This document shows positions 2,482 to 5,856 of a stretch of 18,263 nucleotides of DNA, piece after piece. Under the pieces are notes generated by a model that saw nothing but the letters and a program-made list of their open reading frames with translations, did no database searches and was not told the DNA's origin. The position numbers and the translations under genes were made by a program. Within the stretch, counting starts at the first letter, position 1. Each line of letters opens with the position of its first letter. The DNA comes from Candidatus Undinarchaeales archaeon (lineage in GTDB: Archaea > SpSt-1190 > JASMDC01), in contig JASMDC010000058.1 in assembly GCA_030753015.1 (NCBI GenBank), positions 1 to 18,263 of the forward strand. The letters are read 5' to 3'.

Positions 2482-5256
2482 ATGGTAGGTCGCTCGACTG
2501 CTCGGGGATGGCTCCTGCTCGTCGTAGCCATCATGCTCCTACTTGGTCCCGCGGTAGGTCTCCATTTCAAGCTCGCTGATGAGCGACATGACAGTCAAGG
2601 TAGCGAGTACATGATCCGCTTCCCCATTCCTCTCAAGAACACGAACGTCAGGATCGACAAGCTCGAGACCGTGCACCTGGATTTCCCCGATGACCTCGTA
2701 CAAGAATCGTCCATCCGTGTGATCGAGCGCCTGAACGATACTTTCTATGAGATCCCGTACCAAGTGGTCAAGCTCGGTGACACGTCAACGCTCTCCAAGT
2801 ACGACTCAGGCTTCGTTCGCGCCGTCGACCTGAAGTTCTTCCTCACGATCACCTCGGACAACAGCACGTCCTACTTCGTGCTCGTGTCACCCGAGCGGAC
2901 CCGGCGTGCAGATTACAGTGGGGGCCACGGTGAAATGATCAAAGGCGTCGCCCCGTACATTATCGTGAAGACTGACCATCTTGAGGGTACCTTCACCGAG
3001 AACGGTCTCATGCTCAGGGATGCTGACGGTACGATGCTATCTGATGGGGACAAGTTACAGGAGAGACGGACGGCTGTGTTCCTGAAGGACCTCCCCTCTC
3101 CGAACATAGTACTCAAACCGCGCCTCTCTGTCGAGCCAACAGAGCTTGGAGTGCGGGTGTACGGGACCATGGTCATGCTCGGGTTCCAGCACTCGGCCGA
3201 GTACATGTTCTACGACACGGCACCGGTCTATGAGCGGCTGGAGAAGTTCTCCATCCCCGTGGTCTCGGCCAATCTATGTTATATCGTCTTCAACAGCCTT
3301 GACGTTCTCAAACACAGATGGGACATAACTCTCTATCCCGAGAACAAGACCTTCCACTTGGACGGTGACAGTAACGATCCCCGGTTCCTCTCTGAGCATA
3401 CACAGGTCCAGCGGGGCCAGGCGATAGTCGCCTCGAGTGATGACGTATCTCTGGTGACGATAATCATCGATGTGCCCGAGTTCGAGATGCAAATGGGTTT
3501 CCTCGAGGGTAGTGCGAAGATGTCCATCCCGGGTCTTGGTATCAAGGACCTGGGTTCCATCCATTTCCCCGACACGATGTACCACGGGATGTACTTTACC
3601 AATATCCCCCCTGACTATCATATCACAAACCAGTGTGGGGACATCGCGGGAGTGAGCTCGTTACGCCATATCACATTCCTGATTGATGGTCCCGTGGATT
3701 GGGCCATGGTCGACGAACTGCGTTCGCTCTACCTCGGTACGGTCCTCGAACCGACCGCCTTGCTCAAGGCCGAGTACTACTGGAACGATGCTTGGCGGCA
3801 GGAACCGAGACCTTGTGGTTCGGCGTGCTCCTACGATGGGGAATGCGGGAGCCGTAAGTGTATCGGTGGCCTCTGTAGGCAACCGACCGAGTGCGTATTC
3901 GATGAAAAATGCTATCAGAGCGGAACTGAGTTGGAGAGTCGTATGTGTCTAGACGGCGAATGGCTCCCGATCCAGACAGGGTGCGGGCCCTGCGTGGTCA
4001 TGGCACAGTGCCAAGAAGGCCGGAGGTGCATCGATGGTATCTGCCGGGAGAACAGCACCGTGTGTGGTAAGCAAGGTCGATGCTTCTCCTCGGGCTCTGT
4101 CTACAAGGACGAGTACTGCGAGATGGGATTGTTCTTCAGACGGGCTGGTGGTGGTGCGGAGTGCGATCAGGATTACGAGTGCGAGACCGGTTTTGCATGC
4201 GAGGACGGGCACTGCATCAAGCGCGATGGTATGACTTGTACTGATGATAGCGAGTGCAAGAGCAGGCACTGCTCTCGTGGGATCTGTTGCGTTCAGGGTC
4301 GGCAGTGCTGCCGGGAAGATGACCAGTGCAAACCGCCAACGCGCTGCAATCCCACCACGTTCTACTGCGAGGTGCTCTGCGGTAACGCGGTATGTGATCC
4401 GGACGAGTGCAGTGAGTGTCCGAGCGACTGCTCACTAGAGCAGTGTGCTGACGACCGGTACTGCTCACCCGAGGTGGGGGAGACCTGCGACACCACGACT
4501 TACTGCGAGTGCACGGCCAAGGTGCGGGGATTGTTCGACTCGTCCGAGGAGTACCGGTTCGGCGACATGGTGTTCGTTGAGGCAGAGGTACAGAACTTAG
4601 GTGATGCTCCTGGTACCTACGACGTTGCTTTCACCGTTAACGAACTGAACGTCCTCGAGACCCGGAAGGGCGTACAGATCGGTAAGAACAGCCTTGTTGT
4701 GCTGCCCTTCAACTTCACGGCCCTTGCTCCTTTCGAGACCGTGCATGTTGGCTTTACCGTGTTCTACGGATCGGGGCGCAAGCGACCTGAGCACAGCGAG
4801 ACCGTTACCGTCACCCTCAGGGAGCGCAGGTTCTACGAGACCACCTACTTCGAGTACCTATTTGGCTTCAAGGAGGCCTTCGAGATCGTGGTGGCTATCG
4901 TGACGGTGTTCGGCCTCTTCATGGGATACCGCTCATGGGTGGAGCGCAGTCAAACCGCCCAGCCTGCCGTCGTCTACTACTACTATCCACCTCCCTATGA
5001 GAGTTATTACGGGCAGTATGGCTATTCCTATCCACAGGACGCCTATCCGGCGGGATACACTGAACAAGGCGAGAGCGTGAGCAGCGAGGAGGCGTCCCAA
5101 CCGGTCGAAGCAGCATCTGAAGCTCCCGCAGAGGAGCCTGTTGCCTATGTACAGGAGCAGCCCGTGTACCAGGAGGACGTCCCGACCGAAGCCACGGCCG
5201 AGAGTGATAAGGTGGAACATCAACCCGGTACCGACGGTGTCCAGCCCAACGAGTAA
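2482..5256 (+). CDS. Large type I membrane protein with Cys-rich repeats and CARDB-like domain
   Basis: The product is 924 aa; I do not recognise a named family. Order of parts: a short basic N-terminus and hydrophobic signal segment (~9-27, LLLVVAIMLLLGPAVGL); a long beta-rich ectodomain (~30-440) without obvious motif; a cysteine-rich block (445-677) with about 40 cysteines in repeats such as CTDDSECKSRHCSRGICC and a CGNAVCDPDEC-type motif; a CARDB/Ig-like beta domain (~680-785); a hydrophobic membrane helix (~801-820) followed by basic residues; and a cytoplasmic tail (~830-924) with YYYYPPPYESYYGQYGYSY, then Glu/Gln/Pro/Ala-rich sequence. Inference: secreted through Sec, anchored by one helix, with disulfide-linked ectodomain outside and a disordered Tyr-rich tail inside, so adhesin or receptor-like. 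GAGG abuts the ATG too closely to act as a normal ribosome binding site; the upstream TATA palindrome suggests a very short leader. It ends convergent with the gene at 5329-5856. Confidence 0.85.
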   Translation: MVGRSTARGWLLLVVAIMLLLGPAVGLHFKLADERHDSQGSEYMIRFPIPLKNTNVRIDKLETVHLDFPDDLVQESSIRVIERLNDTFYEIPYQVVKLGDTSTLSKYDSGFVRAVDLKFFLTITSDNSTSYFVLVSPERTRRADYSGGHGEMIKGVAPYIIVKTDHLEGTFTENGLMLRDADGTMLSDGDKLQERRTAVFLKDLPSPNIVLKPRLSVEPTELGVRVYGTMVMLGFQHSAEYMFYDTAPVYERLEKFSIPVVSANLCYIVFNSLDVLKHRWDITLYPENKTFHLDGDSNDPRFLSEHTQVQRGQAIVASSDDVSLVTIIIDVPEFEMQMGFLEGSAKMSIPGLGIKDLGSIHFPDTMYHGMYFTNIPPDYHITNQCGDIAGVSSLRHITFLIDGPVDWAMVDELRSLYLGTVLEPTALLKAEYYWNDAWRQEPRPCGSACSYDGECGSRKCIGGLCRQPTECVFDEKCYQSGTELESRMCLDGEWLPIQTGCGPCVVMAQCQEGRRCIDGICRENSTVCGKQGRCFSSGSVYKDEYCEMGLFFRRAGGGAECDQDYECETGFACEDGHCIKRDGMTCTDDSECKSRHCSRGICCVQGRQCCREDDQCKPPTRCNPTTFYCEVLCGNAVCDPDECSECPSDCSLEQCADDRYCSPEVGETCDTTTYCECTAKVRGLFDSSEEYRFGDMVFVEAEVQNLGDAPGTYDVAFTVNELNVLETRKGVQIGKNSLVVLPFNFTALAPFETVHVGFTVFYGSGRKRPEHSETVTVTLRERRFYETTYFEYLFGFKEAFEIVVAIVTVFGLFMGYRSWVERSQTAQPAVVYYYYPPPYESYYGQYGYSYPQDAYPAGYTEQGESVSSEEASQPVEAASEAPAEEPVAYVQEQPVYQEDVPTEATAESDKVEHQPGTDGVQPNE

Positions 5257-5328: not shown

Positions 5329-5856
5329 TCAGTACAGTTCTTCGAGCAACTCAACGTCCAGCTCATCCTCAAGCACGGGGAGGTTGAGGTCGATTGTGTA
5401 CCTGTGCTCTTCCATGCGCTGAAGCCGACTGTCAATCTGGCCCTTCTTTGTGTTCTCGTCCTTCATGGCCCACGCGATGCCCATATCTATAGGACTCATG
5501 CCTATAGCGACGCCACCAGCAGCAATGCCTGCCGTTTGGACATCGCCGGTGGCCCAGTAGACCAGACCGAAAGTACCTGCGATGAACAAGCCCACGCCAG
5601 CCTGGATGTAGTGCAGGACCTTGGAACCGGACGTACCGTCCTTGTATCCATTCTGGATAATTGCATCCTTCTCCTCCATGAGCTCGTCCATGGCGGAGTA
5701 TAGCTCATCCTGTGAGACGGGTCCTTCGGTGTCGATGGAGAACTTGATGTACTCTGGCTCTTTCTGGTGATTGTAGCCGAAGAGCGAGTTCCACTCGGCG
5801 TCCTCGACCTCCAGATGACCTTCGTGATAAGAAGCGTGAAGTTCTATCTCGTACAT
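5329..5856 (-). CDS. Hypothetical protein with two membrane helices
   Basis: The product is 175 aa; I do not recognise the family. Seen: an acidic N-terminal region (1-50); a likely amphipathic acidic stretch around residues 50-68 (DELYSAMDELMEEKDAIIQ); two hydrophobic Gly/Ala-rich helices (~83-102 and ~107-131) joined by a short ATGDVQ turn; then a charged, Glu-rich C-terminal part (~132-175). This suggests a hairpin in the membrane with both ends on the same side, probably cytoplasmic given the lack of a signal peptide. The start is well supported: a TATA element at 5879-5888 is centred 28 bases before the ATG at 5856, the spacing for a leaderless transcript. The gene is convergent with the Cys-rich protein gene and divergent from the DUF5591-like gene. 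No function can be inferred. Confidence 0.8.
   Translation of the reverse strand: MYEIELHASYHEGHLEVEDAEWNSLFGYNHQKEPEYIKFSIDTEGPVSQDELYSAMDELMEEKDAIIQNGYKDGTSGSKVLHYIQAGVGLFIAGTFGLVYWATGDVQTAGIAAGGVAIGMSPIDMGIAWAMKDENTKKGQIDSRLQRMEEHRYTIDLNLPVLEDELDVELLEELY

What the first reader, a model, noticed from the sequence alone, without database searches (positions are those of the whole stretch)
2482..5256. Receptor-like type I protein with about 40 cysteines and a Tyr/Pro-rich cytoplasmic tail
Seen: signal segment, beta-rich ectodomain, ~40 Cys in 445-677, CARDB-like domain, one membrane helix, and a tail with YYYYPPPYESYY. Inference: an extracellular binding module tied to a cytoplasmic low-complexity tail. 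The PPPY word is the kind of motif that WW domains bind in eukaryotes, and clustered Tyr could be a modification or assembly site. The cysteine repeats imply oxidative folding outside the cell.
Basis: partly seen in the sequence, partly recalled or inferred. Interest (0 to 1): 0.62.

Follow-up and report, generated by a model that had tools for sequence, protein, structure and literature searches.

The report
Archaeal surface protein with tyrosine-rich tail
This is a large archaeal cell-surface protein whose outer part is unlike anything found in the searches made here, while its cysteine-rich stalk, membrane anchor and tyrosine-rich inner tail belong to a family found here only in one small archaeal lineage; the tail may cluster these proteins on the inner side of the membrane, which is untested.

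Summary
ORF 2482-5256 (+) encodes 924 aa: signal segment, 416-aa ectodomain, 40 Cys in residues 445-677, an Ig/CARDB-like domain, one membrane helix and a disordered C-terminal tail with 14 Tyr. The ectodomain has no usable relative in the own genome, 394 archaeal genomes, GTDB contigs, Pfam or PDB, and its model failed (pLDDT 37). The rest (last Cys module, CARDB-like domain, helix, tail) is a family: ten members in this genome, three in phylum-mates and small 200-aa versions in five phylum-mates. Outside the phylum only weak, partial relatives were found, with short or charged ends. Twelve of 13 long members have Tyr-enriched tails (pooled Tyr 11.1% against 2.7%, p about 4e-30), with composition but not positions conserved. 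Similar tails occur on other surface proteins of the genome with VWA-like or sialidase-like domains. The WW-domain idea is not supported: no WW domain was found and PPPY is unique to this tail. Best explanation: an adhesin or receptor on a shared disulfide-rich anchor whose Tyr-rich tail clusters or docks surface proteins through weak multivalent aromatic contacts. Anatomy and family are shown; clustering is inferred. New variant of a known kind.

The parts
2482..5256 (+). whole gene, 924 aa plus stop
   Evidence: 58 bp after a nitroreductase-family ORF (1914-2423, +), convergent with 5329-5856 (-)
2482..2559 (+). signal segment, residues 1-26
   Evidence: hydropathy
2560..3807 (+). orphan ectodomain, residues 27-442
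   Evidence: no usable relative; AF2 without alignment pLDDT 37
3814..4512 (+). block of 40 Cys, residues 445-677, several Cys modules
   Evidence: similar modules in many proteins of the same genome
4366..4512 (+). last Cys module CGNxxCxxxECxxCxxDC...GExC...CxC, the family signature, residues 629-677
   Evidence: invariant columns of A1
4516..4827 (+). Ig/CARDB-like domain, residues 679-782
   Evidence: AF2; Foldseek; VIA Z 11.8
4831..4956 (+). long helix with membrane core (about residues 796-818), residues 784-825
4936..5253 (+). disordered tail, residues 819-924, predicted cytoplasmic
   Evidence: pLDDT below 50 from residue 827; family-wide positive charge after the helix
4975..5058 (+). 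Tyr/Pro cluster YYYYPPPYESYYGQYGYSYPQDAYPAGY, residues 832-859
   Evidence: mixed TAT/TAC codons, so not a fresh codon repeat

Best explanation
A type I surface protein built on a lineage-specific chassis: variable ectodomain, disulfide-rich stalk, CARDB-like juxtamembrane domain, one helix, and a disordered Tyr/Gln/Gly/Pro tail. The orphan ectodomain is the adhesive or ligand-binding part. The tail faces the cytoplasm and gathers these proteins, or docks them to a cytoplasmic partner, by many weak aromatic contacts in which Tyr number counts more than Tyr position. Shown: domain order, CARDB-like fold, the family, compositional conservation of the tail, its presence on proteins with other ectodomains. 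Inferred: cytoplasmic side (signal segment plus positive-inside rule), binding by the ectodomain, clustering by the tail.
For: Family of Cys module + CARDB-like + TM + tail: ten long members in own genome and three in phylum-mates; strong hits (E below 1e-30) only in this phylum among 394 archaea. Tail Tyr 93 of 837 residues (11.1%) against 2.7%, p 4e-30; 12 of 13 individually enriched; net charge after the helix positive in 13 of 13. Outside-phylum CARDB-type relatives end in short or Lys/Arg/Glu-rich tails, 0 of 9 Tyr-rich. Unselected sample of own genome: 4 of 15 single-pass surface candidates have such tails against 0 of 362 C-termini of soluble ORFs, p 1.6e-6. Same tail type on proteins with VWA-like and BNR domains and, inside the family, a LamG domain. 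Small f2 versions keep a 'KKKKY[YF]' tail end while the CARDB part diverges. In FUS-type sequences Tyr number, not position, tunes phase separation (PMC5704491) and Tyr act as stickers with S/G/Q spacers (PMC10850361).
Against: No experiment; no partner known. Tails are short (32-141 aa, 4-15 Tyr), near the low end for self-association. Topology by rule, not by measurement, and for this protein alone the charge difference is small (-1 before, +1 after). Membership was found partly with models that contained the tail. The ectodomain has no fold assignment.
Confidence: 0.45

Rival explanations
1. The tail is a docking peptide: it binds one specific cytoplasmic or membrane complex, such as the conserved multi-TM gene cluster that stands next to some family members, and the Tyr are a binding surface, not stickers.
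For: In f2 genomes the small family member lies beside a second small TM protein with a Pro/Tyr-rich tail and several multi-TM proteins. In the own genome the family member L022 lies beside the same kind of multi-TM genes, including an A5 homologue. The small members keep KKKKY[YF] near the end.
Against: The window gene is not next to that cluster, and long-member tails share composition rather than a motif.
Confidence: 0.25
2. The tail has no specific role: a low-complexity end that merely follows the anchor, inherited and tolerated in this lineage.
For: Fast-changing, unalignable, of variable length.
Against: Tyr is kept at four times background over 13 diverged members at about 24% identity, on unrelated ectodomains too, with mixed codons.
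Confidence: 0.15
3. The tail tyrosines are a phosphorylation or other modification array, with PPPY read by a WW-like domain, giving receptor-type signalling.
For: Clustered Tyr and a PPPY word are present.
Against: No WW domain found in the phylum (control silent); PPPY in one tail only; no reader domain known.
Confidence: 0.08
4. The C-terminal helix and tail are an export or processing signal (archaeosortase-like or pilin-like) and are removed from the mature protein.
For: Archaeal surface proteins often carry C-terminal processing signals (general knowledge).
Against: Such signals end shortly after the helix with a few basic residues, as the relatives outside the phylum do; here 32-141 residues follow.
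Confidence: 0.05

Closest known systems
CARDB domain (PF07705; PF1109 of Pyrococcus, 3idu/2kl6)
   Same: Fold of residues 679-782; top match of Foldseek and VIA
   Different: No Pfam hit for this protein; here it is a juxtamembrane spacer after a Cys block; other Ig-like domains score within one Z unit
CARDB-type surface proteins of other archaea (for example L156, L157, L166)
   Same: CARDB-like region and one C-terminal helix
   Different: Short basic ends, no Tyr-rich tail, far weaker match
FUS-type prion-like low-complexity regions
   Same: Tyr with Gly/Gln/Pro/Ser spacers; number rather than position counts (PMC5704491, PMC10850361)
   Different: Archaeal, short, on a membrane anchor, no RNA-binding part, condensation not tested
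Eukaryotic single-pass receptors with Tyr-rich cytoplasmic tails (general knowledge)
   Same: Topology: folded outside, one helix, disordered tail with Tyr
   Different: No homology; no SH2, WW or kinase link shown

Membership tests
CARDB (PF07705) | score above the Pfam gathering cut-off | tested here: not met
   no hit up to E 10 for the window protein; paralogue L022 19.8 bits, cut-off 22.7
CARDB (PF07705) | seven-strand Ig-like fold of the PF1109 type | tested here: met
   3idu_B Z 11.8, rmsd 3.1 over 104 residues; 2kl6 Foldseek E 3e-6; shared with other Ig-like folds
Type I membrane protein | N-terminal signal segment and a single later hydrophobic helix | tested here: met
Type I membrane protein | C-terminus in the cytoplasm | tested here: inconclusive
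   positive charge after the helix in 13 of 13 family members; no experiment
WW-ligand (PPxY) adaptor | a WW domain in the same organism | tested here: inconclusive
   no hit in 10 genomes, but the 14 control genomes were silent as well
WW-ligand (PPxY) adaptor | PPxY kept in relatives | tested here: not met
   only this tail has it in alignment A1
PcRGLX/YetA-like (PF21345) for the ectodomain | profile match | tested here: not met
   no match at E 1 in the own genome; control rings in Bacillus subtilis and Bacteroides ihuae
Tyr-rich prion-like region | Tyr and Q/G/P enriched, predicted disordered | tested here: met
Tyr-rich prion-like region | self-association or phase separation | not testable with these tools
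   needs purified protein or cells

The most novel reading that the evidence does not exclude
A lineage of archaea uses a shared disulfide-rich anchor with sticker-type Tyr tails to gather many different surface receptors into membrane-bound cytoplasmic condensates, part of them tied to an undescribed multi-TM complex: a prokaryotic counterpart of receptor clustering by disordered tails.
Probability: 0.15. Interest if true: 0.8.

Novelty: new variant of a known kind. Interest (0 to 1): 0.5.

Why it matters
If right, it gives an archaeal example of compositionally conserved Tyr-rich cytoplasmic tails on a whole set of surface proteins, testable with short recombinant tails. It would show that aromatic low-complexity tails organise receptors outside eukaryotes. 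Five searches of the held paper library touching archaeal surface proteins, CARDB, tyrosine-rich tails or prion-like domains turned up no title or abstract describing such tails; I read no paper on this lineage.

Tried and rejected
WW/PPPY signalling. Ectodomain as a PcRGLX/YetA-like fold, a guess from memory: no match. Ectodomain relatives in IMG/VR, GTDB contigs, 394 archaea and PDB: none usable; two hits at E 0.003-0.006 in unrelated archaea are short (92-93 residues) and were not pursued. AF2 of the ectodomain alone: pLDDT 37, not searched further. Genome-contig scan with A1 failed because no stretch was conserved enough; A2 worked and named the phylum-mates. VKOR as oxidant: not found. 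Contaminant contig: tetranucleotide profile r 0.94 to the genome mean, within the range of own contigs (0.87-0.985) though toward its low end. A larger control sample of other archaea could not be fetched, so the specificity of the tail to this phylum rests on 9 homologous comparators and 400 kb of ten genomes, where 1 of 5 candidates, a 19-aa tail with 4 Tyr, also met the loose criterion; against that control alone the difference is not significant (p 1.0).

Full report
Observation. 40 of the 42 Cys lie in 445-677, an even number, so all could be paired. Five N-glycosylation sequons (85, 127, 288, 524, 744) are all on the predicted outer side.

Where it lies. The window is a whole 18.3-kb contig (C71) of a 3.85-Mb archaeal assembly, 98.9% complete with 5.0% contamination. 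The other nine held genomes of the phylum are 0.6-1.1 Mb. Three of them are deposited as 'Ca. Altiarchaeota' or 'DPANN group' MAGs (JAAOXU01, JAAOXW01, WAMX01). The neighbours are ordinary genes (nitroreductase, spermidine synthase-like, adenine deaminase, helicase, deoxynucleoside kinase) and give no clue.

The ectodomain (27-442) is an orphan: no usable match in Pfam, NCBIfam, PDB, IMG/VR, GTDB contigs, elsewhere in the own genome or in 394 archaea. The single-sequence AF2 model is not usable.

The other half is a family. Searching with the whole protein and then with alignment A1 gave ten long members in the own genome (the window gene included; 423 to more than 3,300 aa, up to 500 Cys) and one each in G005, G007 and G009. 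They share the last Cys module, a CARDB-like domain and one helix at about 24% identity, and end in a tail rich in Tyr, Gln, Gly and Pro. Five f2 genomes carry a version of about 200 aa: signal, one Cys module, CARDB-like domain, helix, Pro-rich linker and an end with KKKKY[YF].

Structure. With 13 members AF2 gives the CARDB-like sandwich at high confidence, one helix, and a disordered tail. CARDB of PF1109 is the top match by Foldseek and VIA, but several other Ig-like domains tie within one Z unit, so I call it CARDB-like.

The tail. Pooled Tyr is 93 of 837 (11.1%) against 2.7% in the genome; 12 of 13 tails are enriched at p below 0.05, L024 is not. By a looser rule (at least two Tyr and a third Y/Q/G/P) 12 of 13 pass, L075 failing; none of nine CARDB-type relatives from other phyla does, p about 2e-5 by hand (the 13-of-13 value is slightly too strong). 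These are not independent lineages. In an unselected 678 kb of the genome 4 of 15 single-pass candidates have such tails, against none of 362 soluble C-termini; all four lie on one contig, and against the 5 candidates of the control archaea alone the difference is not significant. Codons are mixed, so the tract is not a fresh repeat expansion. The tails also sit on proteins with VWA-like and BNR domains, and within the family on a LamG protein.

Mechanism. Composition kept without positions is what a sticker-and-spacer tail predicts: in engineered FUS proteins the number but not the position of Tyr matters (PMC5704491). I therefore favour clustering by weak aromatic contacts (0.45). The main rival is docking to a defined partner (0.25), because in f2 genomes the small member, and in the own genome L022, stand beside a conserved set of multi-TM genes.

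Disulfides. Seven DsbA-like stretches pass the cut-off clearly in the genome, which fits oxidative folding outside; VKOR was not found.

Verdict. Real, and more than a single odd protein: a lineage-specific anchor-and-tail family with an orphan ectodomain. The function of the tail is untested.

Noticed in passing
L173:2785-6960 (-); L174:976-4978 (-); L176:720-4877 (-); L172:2642-8530 (+); L175:1269-5968 (-); own genome L204:5045-9517: Conserved cluster of small multi-TM proteins without Pfam assignment, next to the small Cys-CARDB-TM-KKKKYYY gene in f2 genomes and next to the long member L022 in the own genome; possibly an undescribed membrane complex.
   Followed up: partly
L173:6685-6960 (-), L174:4661-4978 (-), L172:2642-2989 (+), L175:5672-5968 (-): Partner gene directly upstream of the small member: 90-115 aa, N-terminal helix, Pro/Tyr-rich stretch with 'GYY', strongly basic C-terminus.
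   Followed up: partly
G000 as a whole: 3.85-Mb assembly in a phylum whose other held genomes are 0.6-1.1 Mb; contamination estimate 5.0%.
   Followed up: no
L024:9058-18999 (-): Open frame of more than 3,300 aa with 500 Cys, same anchor and tail.
   Followed up: no
L032:2620-6627 (+): Surface protein with a Rieske-like CTH...CPLH motif near the N-terminus by eye (no Pfam hit at 1e-3) and the tail end SYYGQYSTVRY.
   Followed up: no
G000:C92, C63, C59: Large ORFs (655-772 aa) with two DsbA-like domains each.
   Followed up: no
L165, L171 (G104) and L152 (G263): In other archaea ORFs at the Cys-module/CARDB-like hits show HerA/VirB4-like ATPase sequence by eye; fusion not checked.
   Followed up: no
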